NCBI GenBank assembly: GCA_020438355.1 | Contig: JAGQUT010000006.1 | Span: 62,001 to 126,000, forward strand | DNA from: Solirubrobacterales bacterium | GTDB lineage: Bacteria; Actinomycetota; Thermoleophilia; Solirubrobacterales; 70-9 | Direction of reading: 5' to 3' | DNA: 64,000 bases | Shown here: piece after piece, positions 55,416-63,815 of the stretch | Numbering within the stretch: the stretch's first letter is position 1 | How the letters are laid out: each line of letters begins with the position of its first letter | The notes under the pieces: model-generated | Databases searched by the model: none | Told to the model about the DNA's origin: nothing | Seen by the model: only the letters and a program-made list of their open reading frames with translations | Translations under genes and position numbers: made by a program

Positions 55416-57266
55416 GTGAGTCGCCCCGTCGCGGCCGGGATGGCGCGAGAAACCGCGCAGCCATCCCCGACCCGGATGGGATCTGACCGGCACAACCGCC
55501 CCGGCATGGAAAACTCCGAGAACAAGCTCAAATTCACGCCGTTCAACCTTGCCGTGCTGCTGGCCGCGCTCTTCATCGGCCTCGGCGCTGGTGCCCTGGC
55601 ATACCGCCAGTACAAGGTCGACAGGAATGACGCCAGCGCTTCGAAGAAGAAGGGCAAGGAAAGCGAGAACCTGAACGCACTCGCGCCGATCGTCGGATCC
55701 GAAGGAAGCAGCGATCCGGGCAACAAGTACGACGCGCAGTTCACCACCTCTTCGATGTGGCCGGAATTCAACCCGGACCGGCACTACTACGTGACACGCT
55801 GCGTCCCGGGCCGGGTCATGGTTCAGGTCAGGTCGATCCCGGAAGTGAAGGTCAAGGTCTGGGCGAACCCGGCTACCGCTGGCCGCTACGGCGCCGAAGC
55901 CAGGCCGATGCCCGGACAGGATTTCAAGGTCAAGATCATTCCCGACGAAGGCAGCACCGAGAACTACAAGGTGCGCTGCCTGCCGTCGGACTTCCCGGAG
56001 TGGCGTTACAAGCGCTTCGCCAAGCCACCCAAGGGCATGTTCATGGTCACCGCCTACCTCAAGCCCGGCGAGAAGGCACGGGCCTGGATGATGGTCTTCG
56101 ATCAGGACGGCACGCCCCGCTGGTGGTACAGCACGCCGACCAACACTCTCGGCGGACAGATCCTTTCCGACGGCACCGTCCAGATTCCGCGCGGCTTCGC
56201 AGACGGCTTCGGTCAGGATGCGCGGACGGCGACGGAGATCCGCAATCTCGACGGCAGCCTCGTCCGAAAGGTCACCTACAAGGGCGCGCCGACCGACGGA
56301 CACGAGTACGTGCTCCTGCCCAACGGGAACGCTCTCGTCATGAGCTACAAGCCGCGCTACGGGGTGGACCTGCGACCGGTCGGCGGCAGGGCCAACCGCG
56401 GGCTGCTCGACGGTGCTTTTCAGGAACAGACCCCTGATGGCAAGGTCGTCTGGGAGTGGAACTCGAAGGACCACGTCTCGATCCAGGAGACCCCCGAGCG
56501 CTGGTGGCAGCGTGCCTGGCGAAACCCCCATTACGACGAGAACGGAAAGATCCGTTACGACCAGTTCCACCTCAACGCGATCGAGCCCTGGGGCGATCAG
56601 TACGTACTCTCCACTCGCCACACGGACACCGTCTGGGGCATCAGCAAGGAAACCGGCGAGCTGCTCTGGAAGTTCGGCGGAGTCCCCACATCGAAGTCAC
56701 TCAAGGTGGTCGGCGACGACCCCTACAAGGGTTATCCGATCTCCGGTAATCACGACGTCCGGATGATCGGCGACATGCTGACGATTCATGACAACGGGGT
56801 GAAGATCAATGGCCGCCAGCCCCGGGCACTCATGTACCGGATCGATCTGAAGAACCGGACCGCCACCTACATCGGAGACTTCCGCGATGACGAGGTTTCA
56901 GGCAACGGCCACTGCTGCGGTTCGTTCCGCCAGATGGGCGACGGCTGGGTGGTCGCCTGGGGAGCTGCCCCCTGGGTCTCGGGATTCACCGAACAGGGCA
57001 AGCTCGCATTCCGCCTCGGGGTTCCGGTTGCGCCTTACCGTGCGGTCCCGTTGCCCTTGAACATCTCGGACGCGGATCTCGACGCAGCCCTGGACGCGAT
57101 GGAGCCGGAACCGCCGATATCCAATCAGCCGATGACCCCGCTCGACTTCTTCGACGACAAGAGCAACCTTCAGGACAAGACGGTGCCGGGCGGCCCGCTG
57201 GGCCCGCTCGAGAACGAGTCCATGGAAGACCTCTCGAACGGCAAGGGCGTCGTAAACCAGGGCTGA
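55416..57266 (+). CDS. Membrane-anchored arylsulfotransferase-like protein
   Basis: 616 residues. One span near residues 40-60 (FNLAVLLAALFIGLGAGALA) places the rest outside. The C-terminal 430 residues form a beta-propeller of the arylsulfotransferase (ASST) type: WMMVFDQDGTPRWWYSTP, DGHEYVLLPNGNALVMSY, FHLNAIEPWGDQYVLSTRHT, GELLWKFGG, NHDVRMIGDMLTIHDNG and GNGHCCGSF. ASST enzymes move sulfate between phenols. Some relatives are not enzymes. GTG 55416 lies right after a TATAGT hexamer; ATGs at 55476 and 55506 are alternatives. Confidence 0.8.
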   Translation: MSRPVAAGMARETAQPSPTRMGSDRHNRPGMENSENKLKFTPFNLAVLLAALFIGLGAGALAYRQYKVDRNDASASKKKGKESENLNALAPIVGSEGSSDPGNKYDAQFTTSSMWPEFNPDRHYYVTRCVPGRVMVQVRSIPEVKVKVWANPATAGRYGAEARPMPGQDFKVKIIPDEGSTENYKVRCLPSDFPEWRYKRFAKPPKGMFMVTAYLKPGEKARAWMMVFDQDGTPRWWYSTPTNTLGGQILSDGTVQIPRGFADGFGQDARTATEIRNLDGSLVRKVTYKGAPTDGHEYVLLPNGNALVMSYKPRYGVDLRPVGGRANRGLLDGAFQEQTPDGKVVWEWNSKDHVSIQETPERWWQRAWRNPHYDENGKIRYDQFHLNAIEPWGDQYVLSTRHTDTVWGISKETGELLWKFGGVPTSKSLKVVGDDPYKGYPISGNHDVRMIGDMLTIHDNGVKINGRQPRALMYRIDLKNRTATYIGDFRDDEVSGNGHCCGSFRQMGDGWVVAWGAAPWVSGFTEQGKLAFRLGVPVAPYRAVPLPLNISDADLDAALDAMEPEPPISNQPMTPLDFFDDKSNLQDKTVPGGPLGPLENESMEDLSNGKGVVNQG

Positions 57267-57285: not shown

Positions 57286-58077
57286 TCAGGGGCAGGGGCG
57301 GTCGGCCCGGGGGTCCGGGATGAATTCGGTGACCGAGACGAGGGCCCTTTCCATGGCTCTCGGTTCGATCTCGTTCGGACCCCGGAATGGCTGCTCGAAG
57401 ACGGCCACGAGATAGATCGAGCAGATGAGGAGCAGCGAGACCGGGAGGATGAACAGCACCTGCCCGCGAATCGGCTCCCTTCCCTTCAGCACCGTCGCGA
57501 AAAGGATCAGCATGAAGCCACCGGCGACCATGAAGACCCAGAACATGGTCGGAAGGAAAGTGTCGGCCTTGAGCAGCCTGGTTGCTCGCGCCTTCTGGAG
57601 GTCGCTAACTCGCTCGAGGGAGGCCGACAGGGCAGAGTTGTCGGCAGCGTTGCGGCCCAGCTTTCCGAAGGACTGGAAGAGCCGGTCGGTCGCGGCGCTT
57701 GCCAACTCTGACCTCTGGCCCTCATGCATCTGCGGCCATTCATCCTCGATTACCGCCCGCGAGTAACAGATGAGTTCGTGGCCGAGCCGGTCCCGGCTCT
57801 CGGCATCAAAGAGTGTTGCAGCGCGGGAAAGGGAACTGACCGAGTCGGCTTCCGTGCCCGCTGCCGTTTCCGCTGCCTGGTAACCATCCAGCGCGTAGGC
57901 CAGGACGAATCCGATCACCAGGGCGTAAAGAACCCCGGCGAAGGCGAAGACCGGCTCCCTTCTCTCCTCGCTGCCTTTCAGCTCATCGGGAACGAACCTT
58001 CGGATCAGGAAGATGGAAAGTGCCGTAACGGCGCAACCTGCAGCCAGGATCGCCAGGCATGTGAGAACGGTGCTCAT
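57286..58077 (-). CDS. DUF4239 membrane protein
   Basis: 263 residues with two spans near the N-terminus (about 5-25, 47-66) and two near the end (about 178-200, 207-227). A cytoplasmic or external helical loop in between is typical of DUF4239 (bestrophin-like). Characteristic segments are FAFAGVLYALVIGFVLAYALDG near 45 and FLPTMFWVFMVAGGFMLILF. Its role is unknown; a channel-like function has been proposed for the fold. The start overlaps the stop of the binding-protein gene (ATGA), so it is the last gene of the five-gene ligase operon. Confidence 0.85.
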   Translation of the reverse strand: MSTVLTCLAILAAGCAVTALSIFLIRRFVPDELKGSEERREPVFAFAGVLYALVIGFVLAYALDGYQAAETAAGTEADSVSSLSRAATLFDAESRDRLGHELICYSRAVIEDEWPQMHEGQRSELASAATDRLFQSFGKLGRNAADNSALSASLERVSDLQKARATRLLKADTFLPTMFWVFMVAGGFMLILFATVLKGREPIRGQVLFILPVSLLLICSIYLVAVFEQPFRGPNEIEPRAMERALVSVTEFIPDPRADRPCP

Positions 58078-59327
58078 TCGTCATCCCTAAGGAGTGACGG
58101 GGGCACGTCAATCGTCCGGCCCAGCACCAGCTGACCATCCTCGACCCGGTAGGCGCCATAGAACGTGAGGGTCGTGTCACCGTTGGCGTCGATCGAGTAG
58201 CTACCGAGCGGGGAGGCCCGTTCGGAAATGTCGAAGAACGCGTTGCGGGTGTTGATCCGAAGCGAGTCGATCGGCTCGGTCGCAATGTCCCCCCGAGCAC
58301 CCCGCCGAATCGAGTCGATCACCGCTCGTCCCGCCTCGTAGGCAAAGACGGCCATCGGCTCGGCGGGCCGTCCGTAGCGCTCCTCGAAACCGTTGAGGAA
58401 AGACTCGCCGCTCTGCGCGTAGTTCCCGGCCGGCAACTGTGGGGCAGTGATGTACGTGTCGAGGGCGGTGTCTCCGATCGATTCAAGAAAACTGGAGAAC
58501 GAAAGGCCATCGCCCCCGAAGAGCTTGATGAAGTTGTTCTCGCGGTGAACCGTCTCGAACAGGTCCCGGGCCAGGTCGAGCTTTGAACCGGCGAAGAGGA
58601 GGGCATCGGCGCGAGATGCGGCAACCTGATCAGCGACATCCGCGATCTGCGCTTCGCGGGTCAGTTCCGCACCGCCGGAGAGCCTGATCCCCATCTGCCG
58701 GGCGATCTTCTCGAACCGGTAACGGAGGCCCCTTCCGTAAGTGTCACCGTCATCCACGACGAAGACCTCGTCGACGTCTTCCTCCTGCATGAACAGCGCC
58801 AGGGCTGCGCTCTGGACATTGTCGTTCGGCACGACCCTGCCGAAGGTCCTGATGCCTGTGGGCCGGATTGCCTCGCCGAGATCAGGGGAGGGCAGGGTGA
58901 GCTTGACAGCAGTCGAGCCGGAACTGACCTGGAGCATGCCGGCCCGGTTCAGAATAGGCATCGCGACCTCGGTCGCACCGGAATCGAAGTCGCCGATGTA
59001 GGCCACGGCCTCGTCATCGGCGGCGGCCAGTCTCGCGTTTCTCCTGACGAGGGCTGGCACCCAGGCGCCCGATTCATCGGAGTCGTTCAGTCCGACGATC
59101 TCGATCTTCGCCGAGTCGACCCTTCCGCCCTCGCCCTCGTTGGCAATCTGGACAGCCCGCAGCATGTCCTCGCCGCCGCGGTCACCCTTCATGGGCTGAC
59201 TCACATAGATCTTCAGTGTGCGGCTGGTCTCCTCGTCACCGGTCTTGCCGCAAGCGGAAACGAGCCCGGCGAGGGCCAGAACGATGGCAGCAACCAGCGC
59301 CGTTGGGGACGAGACGATCGACTTCAA
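58074..59327 (-). CDS. Lipoprotein periplasmic-binding protein (branched-chain amino-acid type)
   Basis: 417 residues. The signal peptide and lipobox LVSAC give an acylated Cys near residue 26. The rest is a type I periplasmic binding fold (LKIYVSQPMKGDRGGEDMLR, GDFDSGATEVAMPILNRAGM, VDEVFVVDDGDTYGRGLRYR, AVFAYEAGRAVIDSIRRG). Such proteins bind amino acids or small peptides for ABC import or sensing. No ABC permease or ATPase genes are near, so a sensory or scavenging role with the ligase operon is possible. Probable TTG start at 59327; a TTG at 59357 would overlap the ligase gene. Confidence 0.83.
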   Translation of the reverse strand: MKSIVSSPTALVAAIVLALAGLVSACGKTGDEETSRTLKIYVSQPMKGDRGGEDMLRAVQIANEGEGGRVDSAKIEIVGLNDSDESGAWVPALVRRNARLAAADDEAVAYIGDFDSGATEVAMPILNRAGMLQVSSGSTAVKLTLPSPDLGEAIRPTGIRTFGRVVPNDNVQSAALALFMQEEDVDEVFVVDDGDTYGRGLRYRFEKIARQMGIRLSGGAELTREAQIADVADQVAASRADALLFAGSKLDLARDLFETVHRENNFIKLFGGDGLSFSSFLESIGDTALDTYITAPQLPAGNYAQSGESFLNGFEERYGRPAEPMAVFAYEAGRAVIDSIRRGARGDIATEPIDSLRINTRNAFFDISERASPLGSYSIDANGDTTLTFYGAYRVEDGQLVLGRTIDVPPSLLRDDE

Positions 59328-59337
59328 GATGGCAGGA

Positions 59338-60420
59338 CTATTCCAGTTCGTCGGCAAGGATGCTGACCATCTGTGCCAGAGAGGGAACTTCCCGACTGAT
59401 CTTTCGCTGGCGTATGGCCCCGTTCTCGCGGGAAAGATCGAGACAGTGCTCGAGTTCCGCCTCGCAGCCGAGATCCTGAGCGTGTGGCCTCAGCGCAGCA
59501 ACCAGGCGATCCACGATGCGTTCGACCGGGACCCGTATTTCGCGCTCGGAATCGATCAGCTGGGCGTTGATTCCGTCGCGCGCCGCCAGGAAGCGATTCT
59601 CGCTGATCGACTCCTGTGAATCGATCTGACCGGTGGTCATGGTGCTGTCAAGGGCCTCCCGGCGCACGAGGCACTGGGTCATTGCGACTAGCGCTGCGGT
59701 GTCTTCATTCCGGGTCTGCGAGTCCATGACCCTGATCTCCAGGGTGCCGAGCCCCGGCTGGGGCCTGACATCCCACCAGAGGAAAGTCGGCTCAGGGATC
59801 GCATCCGTGCGTATCAGCAGGTCGACGTTCTCGACGTACTGGCTGTAGCTGTGGAATGGCCGTGGCACGCCGACCCTGGGGAAGGCCTGGAAGAGCGGAG
59901 TCCGGGCCGAGGAGAGGCCGGTGTCGCGGCCTTGCCAGAAGGGTGAGTTCGCGGAAAGGGCAAGGAGAACCGGCAGGTAGATCCTCATCCGGTTGTGGAC
60001 CTGGATCGCGGTCTCGGGGTCGGCGATGCCTACATGAACGTGAAGAGCAAAGGTCGGTTCGCGCCGGGCAAGCTCCCGCATTGACCCGTGGACGAACTGG
60101 TACCTCTCGCCGGCCGAAACGACGATCTCTTCCCACACCGCGAATGGATGGGTGCCTGCCGAAGCGGCCCTGAGCCGAAGGGTCTTCAAGGTGGCCGCAA
60201 GGTTGTGCCTTAGGGAAGCGATCTGATCCATCGCCTTGCTCACCTGGGTATGCACATCGGTCCTGAGCTCCACCGCTGATCCGTGAGTCTCGGGTGTCAT
60301 GTGGGTGACGACATCCTCCGGCAGCCTGGGTAGTACGGCGTCGATCCGGTTCGCGAGTGCGTTGCTGAGGGCGGAGACCAGCATCACCTCTTCCTCCACT
60401 CCGATCGTGAACTCGCCCAT
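59338..60420 (-). CDS. GCS2-family glutamate-cysteine ligase/carboxylate-amine ligase (YbdK-like)
   Basis: 360 residues. The N-terminal FTIGVEEEVMLV holds the metal-binding Glu cluster; HGSAVELRTDVHT, FALHVHVGI and LWWDVRPQPGLGTLEIRVMDS are the rest of the active site. The family joins an amino group to a carboxylate through acyl phosphate; YbdK has weak gamma-glutamylcysteine synthesis. ATG 60420 starts the domain. It is the third gene of the operon, after the ATP-grasp and amidotransferase genes. Members beside ATP-grasp genes are predicted peptide or amide makers. Confidence 0.9.
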   Translation of the reverse strand: MGEFTIGVEEEVMLVSALSNALANRIDAVLPRLPEDVVTHMTPETHGSAVELRTDVHTQVSKAMDQIASLRHNLAATLKTLRLRAASAGTHPFAVWEEIVVSAGERYQFVHGSMRELARREPTFALHVHVGIADPETAIQVHNRMRIYLPVLLALSANSPFWQGRDTGLSSARTPLFQAFPRVGVPRPFHSYSQYVENVDLLIRTDAIPEPTFLWWDVRPQPGLGTLEIRVMDSQTRNEDTAALVAMTQCLVRREALDSTMTTGQIDSQESISENRFLAARDGINAQLIDSEREIRVPVERIVDRLVAALRPHAQDLGCEAELEHCLDLSRENGAIRQRKISREVPSLAQMVSILADELE

Positions 60421-60476
60421 CGGGTGTGGCTCTTCCGGCCAGATGGCCCATTCCGGTCCTGCGGCTCTGTCGGGTG

Positions 60477-61301
60477 TCAGCGTGATGCCGTTGCCTCCCC
60501 GAGCCTTTGAACGGAGAAGTCCTCGGCCGCATTGACGAACTGCCGGAACAGCTCGAACTGCTCCGGCTGATCGACCATGAGTTCCGCATGCCACTGGACC
60601 CCGATCATGAATTCACGGTCCGGGTCCTCGATTGACTCGGTGGCTCCGTCCGGAGCCCAGCCAGTGGCAACGAGTCCCTCTCCGATCTTCTCGACCGCTT
60701 GATGATGGAAGGAATTGACGGCGATGACCGGAGAACCGACGATCAGGGAGACCCGGGATTTCGGGTCCAGATCAACCCGGTGGGCGGCGGTCTGACCCGG
60801 CATCTTCTGGCGGTGCTCGACATCCAGCCAGCGGTCCGGGATGTGCTGGAGCAGGGTTCCGCCGCGACTGATGTTGAGCGCCTGCATCCCCCGGCAAATT
60901 GCCAGCAGGGGGAGCCCCGAAGCATCGGCCTTGCGGGCGATCTCGAGCTCGAAATGGTCCAGGTCGGGCGCCGTCGGACCGAGATGCTCGTGTGGCTCCT
61001 GCCCGTAATGGTCGGGATGGATGTCCGGACCTCCGGAAAGGCAGATGCCGTCCAGATGCTCTAGCAGCGCCCCGATCAGCCCCGTGTCCATCGGGGGGAT
61101 GACGACGGGGATGCCTCCTGCCACCTCGACGGCCTTCATGTAGGTCAGCCCCAACGCCATCTCGTGACGGGGAGGTTCCCCCTCCGGCGTAGGTGAAACC
61201 GTCTCGGCTTTCCTCAGCTCGGAAGTCGTGACCCCGATCAAGGGCTTTCTCGTCTCCGGGGCGCGGGTCAACCCCCGCAAAGTCAGTCCTCCAGTATCCA
61301 T
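60477..61301 (-). CDS. Gamma-glutamyl-GABA hydrolase family protein (PuuD-like)
   Basis: 274 residues, class I amidotransferase-like hydrolase. The nucleophile Cys is in LLAICRGMQALNISRGGTL, and the His-Glu pair is in IGVQWHAELM; GICLSGGPDIHPDHYG gives the oxyanion loop. PuuD hydrolyses gamma-glutamyl amides. In the operon it may trim or recycle gamma-glutamyl products of the GCS2 ligase. The start overlaps the end of the ATP-grasp gene by 19 bases, indicating tight coupling. Confidence 0.9.
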   Translation of the reverse strand: MDTGGLTLRGLTRAPETRKPLIGVTTSELRKAETVSPTPEGEPPRHEMALGLTYMKAVEVAGGIPVVIPPMDTGLIGALLEHLDGICLSGGPDIHPDHYGQEPHEHLGPTAPDLDHFELEIARKADASGLPLLAICRGMQALNISRGGTLLQHIPDRWLDVEHRQKMPGQTAAHRVDLDPKSRVSLIVGSPVIAVNSFHHQAVEKIGEGLVATGWAPDGATESIEDPDREFMIGVQWHAELMVDQPEQFELFRQFVNAAEDFSVQRLGEATASR

Positions 61302-62689
61302 GTGTCCTTCGCTCCTCCTCCCTGCGTGCTGCTTACGACCAGGTTGTCCGCGGCGCGGGCGAACCTTGTCAAAGCCAGCGGTGCCACGGTTTGCTCTCCC
61401 CCCGAGGTGAACACGTACGGCCGCAGGTCGATGTGCCTTGGCTCGAGCTGATCACCGATCAGTGTCGGGTGGGTCGAAAGCCCGATCATTTCCTGGGCCA
61501 CGAACCGGCCGGGGTTGCTTTCAACGGCGTGTCTGACTTTTTCGAGCTCCCGGGCGCTGGCTCGCGGTCCGATCACTATGTCCTGCCCCCCGAGTGCCCA
61601 GCGTGGCTTGACGACCAGTCGGTCGAGCTGACCCATCGCCTGGCTCGCCTGTTCCGGGTTTCCAAGGTCGTATGACTCGGGGATCGGGAGGATCGGCTCC
61701 TCGTCAAGGTAGAAGCGGATCATCTCCGGGGTGTAGCAGTGCACCGCCTTGTCGTCGGCGATCCCCGCTCCGAACGAGTTTGCGCAGGAGAGGGTGCCCT
61801 TCCGGAGCGGTTCGATGAGAAGTTCCCCCAGCGGTGTCAGGCCGTTTCCCATGCGGGTGATCCGGTCGGTGTCGCTGCGGTTGTAGAGAACGTCTACGGG
61901 CCGCAGGCCGTCGTCCTTCCGGGCGACCAGACGGCCGGAAGAGACCTCAAGGTCTCTCGGAGTCACGACGTCGATGTCGAGCAGCCGGCCCAGAGACTGA
62001 TGCTCGAACCAGGCTGCGCTGTCAGGGCCTTCGCTGAGGATGGCCACTCCCGGTTCAGCTACCCCATCGGGACTCTTGGCACGGAGCAACTCGGCCAGCA
62101 TGGAGAATGCGCCTTCGGCATCGGCCAGGCTTTCCTCAACGGGCCACCGGCCGGCAACTGCCCTCCGGGCTGCGAGAGTGAACGTCAGCCCGGAAGGAAA
62201 GCGGAGGTTGTCCTCCAGAACCCGAAACCCGGTTTCGTCACGAACCAGGTCCGGCCCGGCGATGTCAGCGAGAACCGGAGCGCCAAAGCCGGCTGCCACG
62301 GGTTCGTAGTGCGGCGCTCCGTCAAGGATCGATCGGCGAATGACCCCGGCGGAAAGGATCTCCTGGCGCGAATAGATGTCGGCCAGGAAGCTCTGCAGGG
62401 CCCTGACCCTCTGCTTCAGCCCGGCGACCAGCCCGGACCATTCCGCTCCGGTGATGATGCGTGGAATCGCGTCGACCACGAATGCAGAACGCATCCCCTC
62501 GGGGCCAAACGAGACCCCGGCCTCCGAAAGGCTCGACTGAACCTGTCCCTGGACCTCGTTGAGAGACGCACCGTCGACGCCGTCGAACAGTCTTCGGTAG
62601 GGGCCCCGCAGTTCGCCATCGGCCAGGAACGCCTCGTCGAAATAGTCCGAAATGCGGTACCCGGTGGTCGCTGGCTGCACAGCCGTCAT
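61283..62689 (-). CDS. Circularly permuted ATP-grasp protein
   Basis: 468 residues. The circularly permuted ATP-grasp layout is seen in GYRISDYFDEAF, FVVDAIPRIITGAEW, LVRDETGFRVLEDNLRFPSG and, near the end, LDRLVVKPRWALGGQDIVIG and DLRPYVFTSGGEQTVAPLAL. Permuted ATP-grasp proteins are thought to form amide bonds. Usual partners such as an alpha-E protein or transglutaminase are absent, and GCS2 and PuuD take their place. ATG 62689 follows TATCGT by six bases and opens the operon. Confidence 0.88.
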   Translation of the reverse strand: MTAVQPATTGYRISDYFDEAFLADGELRGPYRRLFDGVDGASLNEVQGQVQSSLSEAGVSFGPEGMRSAFVVDAIPRIITGAEWSGLVAGLKQRVRALQSFLADIYSRQEILSAGVIRRSILDGAPHYEPVAAGFGAPVLADIAGPDLVRDETGFRVLEDNLRFPSGLTFTLAARRAVAGRWPVEESLADAEGAFSMLAELLRAKSPDGVAEPGVAILSEGPDSAAWFEHQSLGRLLDIDVVTPRDLEVSSGRLVARKDDGLRPVDVLYNRSDTDRITRMGNGLTPLGELLIEPLRKGTLSCANSFGAGIADDKAVHCYTPEMIRFYLDEEPILPIPESYDLGNPEQASQAMGQLDRLVVKPRWALGGQDIVIGPRASARELEKVRHAVESNPGRFVAQEMIGLSTHPTLIGDQLEPRHIDLRPYVFTSGGEQTVAPLALTRFARAADNLVVSSTQGGGAKDTWILED

Positions 62690-62701: not shown

Positions 62702-62882
62702 AGCCGGACCGCGCGTTCGCGATTTGGCCGGTGGTCGAAATTCAGAGTTGTGAGACTGACCGTCACGGAAATCCGAGGGAGGGCACTTTGAATGCCGGGC
62801 ACGAGGCTAGTGGGGTTCCGGCCGGTTGAATCACCTCACTACGATTGATGGGCGAAGCTTCAACCCACCGAAAGAGGAACCA

Positions 62883-63815
62883 GTGAGTACTGCGCAGTTC
62901 GAGAAGGAAACTGACAAGAAGGGGGCTTTCGTCCGTCAGGCGAGCGCCTTCCGCGAGTCGGTCACGGCAGACGGTTCCTCCGGTTTCAAGGCAGAGCCTG
63001 GCCGTTACCACCTATACGTGAGTTATGCCTGTCCGTGGGCCTCCCGCGCGATCATCTACCGGAAGCTGAAGGGACTCGAGGACGTGATCTCGATGACCGT
63101 TGTGGATCCTGTCAGGGACGATCAGGGCTGGCGGTTCCTTGACGACGATCCCGATCCGATCAACGGCTACGAGTATCTGCTAGACGCCTATCTCAAGACC
63201 GACCCGGACTTCAGCGATCGCGTGACTGTTCCCGTGCTCTGGGACAAGGATTCGAACCGGGCGGTCAACAACGAGAGCAGCGAGATAATCCGGATGCTGA
63301 ACACCGAGTTCAACGAGTGGGCAAAGAACCCCGAGCTCGACTTCTACCCGGAGGCGCTTCGCGAAGAGATCGACGAGATCAACGACCGGGTCTACAACTC
63401 GATCAACAACGGCGTCTATCGGGCGGGTTTCGCCACCACCCAGGAGGCCTACGAAGAAGCTTTCATTGATCTCTTCCAGGCACTCGACGAGATCGACGAT
63501 CGCCTCGCCGCGAAGCGGTACCTGACCGGCGACTCGATCACCGAGGCCGACTGGCGCCTCTTCGTGACGCTGGTTCGCTTCGACGCGGTCTACGTTGGTC
63601 ATTTCAAATGCAACCAGAGGCGGATCGCTGACTACGACAATCTCTCCGGCTACCTGCGCGAGCTGTATCAGCATCCGGGCGTTCGGGAAACGGTAGAGAT
63701 GGATCACATCAAACGCCATTACTACGTGACGCATCCGAAGATCAACCCCACCCAGATCGTCCCCATGGGACCCGAGCTGGATCTGGACAGCGATCCGGGC
63801 CGCGGTCACCTATAG
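62883..63815 (+). CDS. Xi-class glutathione transferase/glutathionyl-hydroquinone reductase-like
   Basis: 310 residues. The thioredoxin-like domain has the catalytic Cys in YVSYACPWASRAIIYRKLKG and cis-Pro in VTVPVLWDK. A helical domain follows (WRLFVTLVRFDAVYVGHFKCN, ending in the C-terminal dimer segment). Enzymes of this class remove glutathione from glutathionyl-hydroquinones. GTG 62883 has GAGG five bases upstream; ATG 62826 would add 19 residues unlike the family. Most actinobacteria make mycothiol, so the thiol used here is uncertain. The ligase operon lies just upstream on the other strand. Confidence 0.87.
   Translation: MSTAQFEKETDKKGAFVRQASAFRESVTADGSSGFKAEPGRYHLYVSYACPWASRAIIYRKLKGLEDVISMTVVDPVRDDQGWRFLDDDPDPINGYEYLLDAYLKTDPDFSDRVTVPVLWDKDSNRAVNNESSEIIRMLNTEFNEWAKNPELDFYPEALREEIDEINDRVYNSINNGVYRAGFATTQEAYEEAFIDLFQALDEIDDRLAAKRYLTGDSITEADWRLFVTLVRFDAVYVGHFKCNQRRIADYDNLSGYLRELYQHPGVRETVEMDHIKRHYYVTHPKINPTQIVPMGPELDLDSDPGRGHL

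What the first reader, a model, noticed from the sequence alone, without database searches (positions are those of the whole stretch)
57286..62689. Five-gene amide-ligase operon: permuted ATP-grasp, PuuD-like hydrolase, GCS2 ligase, lipoprotein, DUF4239
The genes are packed on one strand: 19-base overlap, 56-base gap, 10-base gap and a 4-base overlap. Two different amide-forming folds plus a gamma-glutamyl hydrolase suggest synthesis and recycling of a small peptide or gamma-glutamyl amide. The lipoprotein could recapture it and the membrane protein move it. Earlier comparative genomics (amidoligase work from the Aravind group) predicted peptide-making systems with ATP-grasp and GCS2 genes; I do not recall this five-gene set being characterised.
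Basis: partly seen in the sequence, partly recalled or inferred. Interest (0 to 1): 0.62.

Follow-up and report, generated by a model that had tools for sequence, protein, structure and literature searches.

The report
Three-gene gamma-glutamyl peptide ligase module
A compact set of three enzymes, two that join small molecules with ATP and one that cuts gamma-glutamyl bonds, is inherited together across one bacterial order and probably makes a small glutathione-like compound that is not yet identified, while the two extra genes beside it look like bystanders.

Summary
The five genes are real and arranged as described, but they are not one unit. The first three (circularly permuted ATP-grasp, PuuD-like hydrolase, GCS2 ligase) form a conserved module. 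In 232 genomes of the window's order, module-type ATP-grasp occurs in 56; 55 of those also hold module-type PuuD and 50 module-type GCS2. In 35 of the 49 genomes with all three the genes lie together; in others they are unlinked yet all kept. The last two genes (binding-protein lipoprotein, DUF4239) are a separate pair, kept at the same locus in three same-genus genomes that lack the module; one of these keeps a remnant of the lost GCS2 end. All five occur together only in the window genome and G012. The module's ATP-grasp is a clade of its own (100/100), apart from the classic ATP-grasp/Alpha-E/transglutaminase type. Its model matches full-length eukaryotic-type glutathione synthetases (Z about 27), and no genome of the order shows a recognisable mycothiol ligase. 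Best reading: a glutathione-like two-ligase gamma-glutamyl pathway with built-in deglutamylation; substrates unknown. GCS2 probably starts at a CTG overlapping the PuuD stop.

The parts
61283..62689 (-). ATPG: circularly permuted ATP-grasp ligase (PF14403), 468 aa, first gene of the module
   Evidence: own clade in the tree; model pLDDT 91, full-length match to eukaryotic-type glutathione synthetase; E159, D160, N161, K361, D421, R423 and K461 invariant in 19 of 19 (their reading as ATP/Mg residues is recalled).
60477..61301 (-). PuuD-like hydrolase of the class-I glutamine-amidotransferase fold (Peptidase_C26), 274 aa, second gene
   Evidence: C136, H238, E240 invariant in 19 of 19 module PuuDs (their reading as the catalytic triad is recalled); overlaps ATPG by 19 nt.
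59338..60480 (-).
   Evidence: (TIGR02050 257.7 against cut-off 176.4); model matches YbdK and plant glutamate-cysteine ligase.
58074..59327 (-). Periplasmic-binding-protein-type lipoprotein (Peripla_BP_6), TTG start; NOT part of the conserved module
   Evidence: kept at the same locus in module-less same-genus genomes.
57286..58077 (-). DUF4239 / Bestrophin-like membrane protein (PF14023); partner of the lipoprotein, NOT part of the conserved module
   Evidence: adjacent to the lipoprotein gene in G009 and G011; in G013 each lies at the end of its own contig.

Best explanation
A three-gene module (ATPG-PuuD-GCS2) for a glutathione-like small molecule. GCS2 uses ATP to join glutamate's gamma-carboxylate to the amine of a compound X, giving gamma-Glu-X. 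ATPG, whose fold is that of eukaryotic glutathione synthetase and glutathionylspermidine synthetase, then activates the free carboxylate of that product as an acyl phosphate and adds a second amine Y, giving gamma-Glu-X-Y. The PuuD-like enzyme cleaves the gamma-glutamyl bond, either to free X-Y (gamma-Glu as a temporary protecting group) or to turn the product over. Shown: gene identities, conserved putative active-site residues, co-inheritance, a separate ATP-grasp clade, the fold. Inferred: that the three act in one pathway, the order of steps, glutamate as donor. Unknown: X and Y. The downstream lipoprotein-DUF4239 pair is a separate unit that lies, and may be co-transcribed, downstream.
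For: Co-occurrence over 232 order genomes: module-type ATPG in 56, GCS2 in 68, PuuD in 75, all three in 49; ATPG and PuuD together in 55 of 56, ATPG and GCS2 in 50 of 56; Fisher P 1e-28 to 4e-35, not corrected for kinship. Linked in 35 of those 49, in the orders ATPG-PuuD-GCS2 and PuuD-ATPG-GCS2; in G093 and G595-G600 all three are present at separate places. RTGA overlap at the PuuD/GCS2 joint in 15 of 16 relatives. No other gene family recurs beside them in more than 5 genera. ATPG model: human glutathione synthetase Z 26.9 over 406 residues; YjfC, YgiC, GspS, ligase Cp1B and trypanothione synthetase Z 21-25; everything else listed 11.8 or lower, apart from the unstudied 3n6x at 40.5. GCS2 model: YbdK, a bifunctional glutathione synthetase, plant glutamate-cysteine ligase.
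Against: No substrate evidence. ATPG matches no NCBIfam family up to E 0.1, and GCS2 and PuuD fall below every equivalog cut-off, so none is an orthologue of an enzyme of tested function. The fold match of ATPG to glutathione synthetases is at 11-16% identity. GCS2-fold enzymes need not use glutamate. The module is patchy: 2 of 18 genomes of the window's genus hold its PuuD and GCS2, so it is not an essential cofactor pathway there. The GCS2 model is weak around residues 90-122 and 159-184.
Confidence: 0.5

Rival explanations
1. Specifically a low-molecular-weight thiol: GCS2 makes gamma-Glu-Cys, ATPG adds a C-terminal amine to give a glutathione analogue, PuuD recycles it.
For: The fold pair equals glutamate-cysteine ligase plus eukaryotic-type glutathione synthetase. 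No MshC over the curated cut-off in 232 order genomes, in line with PMC4255298 (passages), which finds the mycothiol pathway absent from non-actinomycete actinobacteria apart from Acidimicrobium. A GST gene sits divergently next to ATPG.
Against: The GST is kept next to the locus in G009, G011 and G013, which lack the module, so it does not depend on it. All three genes are in only 49 of 232 genomes. No cysteine-specific feature was tested.
Confidence: 0.2
2. Amine salvage as in the gamma-glutamyl-polyamine route: GCS2 gamma-glutamylates an amine, further steps oxidise it, PuuD releases glutamate; ATPG acts on a side branch.
For: PuuD-type hydrolases serve such routes in E. coli (recalled). 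PuuD-GCS2 pairs occur without module-type ATPG in several genomes (for example G537, G541, G544).
Against: No amine oxidase, aldehyde dehydrogenase or transporter was among the recurring neighbours identified (not all clusters were identified). Module-type PuuD is missing from only 1 of 56 genomes with module-type ATPG.
Confidence: 0.12
3. ATPG plus PuuD is a glutamine-dependent amidotransferase: PuuD hydrolyses glutamine and feeds ammonia to ATPG; GCS2 is a neighbouring separate step.
For: PuuD has a class-I glutamine amidotransferase domain score of 56.3 bits against 22.8; ATPG and PuuD overlap in most relatives.
Against: PuuD goes with GCS2 in 61 of 68 genomes as well as with ATPG and scores far better in the hydrolase family Peptidase_C26. 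In G020, G602 and G603 PuuD sits with GCS2 while ATPG is elsewhere.
Confidence: 0.12
4. One reading: ligases plus hydrolase make a compound that the lipoprotein recaptures and the membrane protein moves.
For: All five are co-directional with tight spacing in the window, and in G012 as far as its contig reaches; the remnant in G013 suggests that the arrangement is older than these two genomes.
Against: The lipoprotein-DUF4239 pair is kept without the module in G009, G011 and G013, and the module occurs without the pair in the other genera compared. No ABC ATPase or permease among the 9 proteins annotated around it.
Confidence: 0.06

Closest known systems
CP_ATPgrasp_2 / Alpha-E / transglutaminase (with or without Anbu) predicted peptide system
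   Same: Same ATP-grasp family (PF14403); 66 positions at 95% or more identical in both clades, so similar chemistry is likely.
   Different: Separate clade (100/100). 79 of the 80 ATP-grasp loci carry Alpha-E and 0 of 80 a PuuD or GCS2 match over 45 bits in the DNA held; in the module it is the reverse. Some genomes hold both types, for example G053 and G099.
Glutathione synthesis: glutamate-cysteine ligase plus eukaryotic-type glutathione synthetase
   Same: Two ATP-dependent ligases with the same pair of folds.
   Different: ATPG only 11-16% identical to glutathione synthetases; a PuuD-like hydrolase as a third, nearly constant partner; substrates untested.
E. coli YbdK (carboxylate-amine ligase)
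   Same: Closest solved structures to GCS2: 1r8g, 1tt4; GCS2 is over the YbdK subfamily cut-off.
   Different: GCS2 stands in a conserved operon and forms a high-scoring group of its own in the order.
PuuD gamma-glutamyl-GABA hydrolase
   Same: Peptidase_C26 domain and conserved Cys, His, Glu.
   Different: Below the PuuD equivalog cut-off (89.8 against 266); the partner ligase is GCS2-type, not glutamine-synthetase-type (the latter recalled).

Membership tests
CP_ATPgrasp_2 (PF14403) | Curated domain score | tested here: met
   321.5 bits against cut-off 32.
ATP-grasp/Alpha-E/transglutaminase system | Alpha-E and transglutaminase genes next to the ATP-grasp gene | tested here: not met
   Neighbours are PuuD and GCS2; 79 of 80 loci have an Alpha-E match and 73 of 80 a transglutaminase-like match (representatives identified).
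ATP-grasp/Alpha-E/transglutaminase system | ATP-grasp within that clade | tested here: not met
   29 module-type rows and 29 Alpha-E-type rows split by one branch, support 100/100 (rows chosen from the loci held).
Eukaryotic-type glutathione synthetase / GspS | Full-length circularly permuted ATP-grasp fold | tested here: met
   2hgs Z 26.9, 406 residues; GspS Z about 24.
Eukaryotic-type glutathione synthetase / GspS | Use of gamma-Glu-Cys and glycine, or glutathione and spermidine | not testable with these tools
   Needs biochemistry; substrate-site residues were not mapped on structures.
YbdK-type carboxylate-amine ligase (TIGR02050) | Curated subfamily score | tested here: met
   257.7 bits against 176.4.
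EgtA and cyanobacterial GshA | Curated equivalog score | tested here: not met
   EgtA 23.7 against 370.8; gshA_cyano 56.3 against 249.05.
PuuD equivalog (PRK11366) | Curated equivalog score | tested here: not met
   89.8 against 266.
Peptidase_C26 gamma-glutamyl hydrolases | Domain score and conserved Cys, His, Glu | tested here: met
   194.3 against 20.5; C136, H238, E240 in 19 of 19.
Mycothiol pathway in the order | MshC over its curated cut-off | tested here: not met
   0 of 232; listed hits 262-312 bits against 485.1, probably cysteinyl-tRNA synthetase.
ABC importer for the lipoprotein | ATPase and permease genes alongside | tested here: not met
   None among the 9 proteins annotated at 53.1-63.8 kb; elsewhere in the genome not searched.

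The most novel reading that the evidence does not exclude
Solirubrobacterales-type actinobacteria, which lack a recognisable mycothiol ligase, carry an undescribed protect-ligate-deprotect or glutathione-like pathway in which a GCS2 ligase adds gamma-glutamate, a new clade of circularly permuted ATP-grasp extends the product, and a PuuD-like enzyme removes the gamma-glutamate, yielding an unknown small peptide or amide.
Probability: 0.35. Interest if true: 0.7.

Novelty: new variant of a known kind. Interest (0 to 1): 0.5.

Why it matters
It marks off a small, testable enzyme set (three genes, about 3.4 kb) of unknown product in an actinobacterial order with no recognisable mycothiol ligase, and it gives the poorly characterised circularly permuted ATP-grasp and YbdK families partners that narrow their likely chemistry. 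It also shows, from a lost-and-replaced locus, how tight gene spacing alone overcounted an operon.

Tried and rejected
Five-gene operon as a functional unit: rejected. Gene fusion of ATPG, PuuD and GCS2 (long open frames in L039, L045, L048, L051, L066): rejected by reading the translations; the extra residues look like out-of-frame readings of the neighbour in high-GC DNA. A fixed fourth partner: none found; a rhodanese gene near ATPG in 4 genomes of 3 genera, a P-type ATPase and a thioesterase in f1, serA-, ilvC- and leuA-type genes near the module or its parts in f2. The module arriving recently beside the pair: disfavoured by the GCS2 remnant in G013. Link to the neighbouring GST: weakened, since the GST stays where the module is absent. 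Sigma-70-like promoters: 0 found, 0.8 expected; terminator-like sites 5 against 3.8 expected, uninformative. Literature: searches listed no paper whose title or abstract start concerns this gene set; only open-licence PMC papers are held and few were opened, so absence from print is not shown.

Limits of the counts. The bit cut-offs for module-type genes (ATPG 550, GCS2 430, PuuD 300) were chosen after seeing the score gaps. G070 (ATPG 524 bits, one in-frame stop) was counted by hand as module-type. G012's ATPG is cut by a contig end and was not counted; fragments in G030, G049 and G090 and a second 538-bit copy in G495 were not counted. GCS2 hits between 430 and about 510 bits may include another subfamily. 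Many genomes are incomplete. Fisher values ignore kinship. In one search the profile wrongly included the paralogue at contig C111; it was replaced by A4. The first GCS2 query was in the wrong frame by one base and was corrected from then on.
Full report
What is there. The five minus-strand genes exist as listed: ATPG 61283-62689, PuuD-like 60477-61301, GCS2 59338 to about 60480, lipoprotein 58074-59327, DUF4239 57286-58077. In 15 of 16 relatives the PuuD stop forms an RTGA whose RTG is in frame with GCS2; the closest relative G012 has GTGA; the window has CTGA, and the residues downstream match the family N-terminus. GCS2 therefore probably starts at a CTG at 60480 with a 4-nt overlap, and the 56-nt gap is probably not real. 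The window lies in a 2.6-Mb draft genome. One named relative with the same ATP-grasp type, placed in the tree beside genomes of the window's order, is Solirubrobacter phytolaccae, so the order is probably Solirubrobacterales (inference).

A three-gene module. In a first survey of 101 genomes (window's own included) ATPG matched in 42, and neighbourhoods showed ATPG, PuuD and GCS2 side by side on one strand in many of them. Profile searches over 232 genomes of the order gave module-type ATPG in 56, GCS2 in 68, PuuD in 75 and all three in 49; ATPG with PuuD in 55 of 56, ATPG with GCS2 in 50 of 56 (cut-offs set on the score gaps, G070 added by hand). They lie together in 35 of the 49: order ATPG-PuuD-GCS2 in 22, PuuD-ATPG-GCS2 in 12, and G052, which has ATPG-PuuD-GCS2 plus a second PuuD. 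In G093 and G595-G600 all three are kept at separate places. Keeping all three without linkage argues for a shared function. No other family recurs beside them in more than 5 genera.

Not a five-gene unit. Close relatives of the lipoprotein and of DUF4239 (74% identity or more) were found only in G000, G009, G011, G012 and G013 of 101 genomes. G009, G011 and G013 have no module genes. Their loci show the same flanks (GST on one side; lipoprotein, DUF4239, arylsulfotransferase-like, YciC-like, MFS and hydrolase genes on the other; in G013 split over two contigs), but the module slot holds an FMN reductase, a secreted protein and, in G009 and G011, a flavin-reductase/FAD protein; the FMN reductase is on the other strand from the lipoprotein. 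DNA similarity between the window and G009 or G011 stops at 59345 and resumes at 62892. In G013 the 60 bases before the lipoprotein match the last 60 bases of G012's GCS2 at 45 positions (41 for the window); the best of 200 shuffles anywhere on one strand of that locus was 35. So the module was most likely there and was lost, while the pair stayed. G009 and G011 show no such remnant.

A separate clade of ATP-grasp. In a tree of 58 proteins the 29 module-type rows and 29 Alpha-E-type rows are split by one branch with 100/100 support. Of the 80 best loci from other genomes, 79 have an Alpha-E match and 73 a transglutaminase-like match, and none has a PuuD or GCS2 match over 45 bits in the DNA held; the exception, Solirubrobacter phytolaccae, is module-type near a contig edge. 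Module-type ATPG (550 bits or more) was not seen outside the order among the 299 class genomes, where the best outside score was 525.6. The two clades share 66 near-invariant positions, so the chemistry is probably similar.

What it probably does. ATPG's model (pLDDT 91) matches, after an unstudied structural-genomics entry (3n6x, Z 40.5), human glutathione synthetase (Z 26.9, 406 residues), plant and yeast homologues, E. coli YjfC and YgiC (about 25), glutathionylspermidine synthetase (about 24), ligase Cp1B (22.8) and trypanothione synthetase (about 21); the other ATP-grasps listed are at 11.8 or lower. GCS2's model (pLDDT 77, weak in 90-122 and 159-184) matches YbdK and then a bifunctional glutathione synthetase and plant glutamate-cysteine ligase. 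PuuD keeps its Cys, His and Glu in 19 of 19. Two ligases of the glutathione-pathway fold pair plus a gamma-glutamyl-hydrolase-type enzyme, kept together, suggest gamma-glutamylation, extension and deglutamylation of a small molecule. Which molecule is unknown. A thiol is possible: no MshC passes its cut-off in 232 genomes, in line with PMC4255298 (passages). The neighbouring GST cannot be used as support, because it persists without the module.

Against this reading: no equivalog assignment for any of the three, low identity in the fold match, patchy presence even within the genus (2 of 18), and no substrate data. Iyer et al. 2009 could not be read, so prior mention of this trio is not excluded.

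Noticed in passing
60478-60480 (-): Likely CTG start codon for GCS2 where 15 of 16 relatives have ATG or GTG overlapping the PuuD stop.
   Followed up: yes
L076 9221-10327 (G000:C111): A second GCS2 gene, 33% identical to the module's, next to tsaD and a gene with Put_DNA-bind_N and CoA_binding domains (Rex-like, recalled).
   Followed up: partly
62826-63815 (+): Glutathione-S-transferase of the glutathionyl-hydroquinone-reductase kind (name recalled) in an order without a recognisable mycothiol ligase; conserved at this place with or without the module. A Xi-class mycothiol transferase from C. glutamicum is in PMC6815410 (search listing only).
   Followed up: partly
L227 6349-9988; L228 11034-14817: An FMN reductase, a flavin-reductase/FAD-NAD(P) protein and a secreted protein occupy the module's slot in G009 and G011.
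   Followed up: partly
L066 7756-9941 (G070): ATPG interrupted by an in-frame TGA and a frame break while PuuD and GCS2 are open: a decaying copy or an assembly error.
   Followed up: no
L055, L209 and relatives: In several f2 genomes the module or its GCS2 lies near serA-, class-V-aminotransferase-, ilvC- and leuA-type genes.
   Followed up: partly
55416-57266 (+): Arylsulfotransferase-like (PF14269) protein next to DUF4239, conserved in G009, G011, G012 and G013.
   Followed up: no
L040 and L043 (G084): Two module-type ATPG genes in one genome, one of them without PuuD or GCS2 on its 5.5-kb contig.
   Followed up: no
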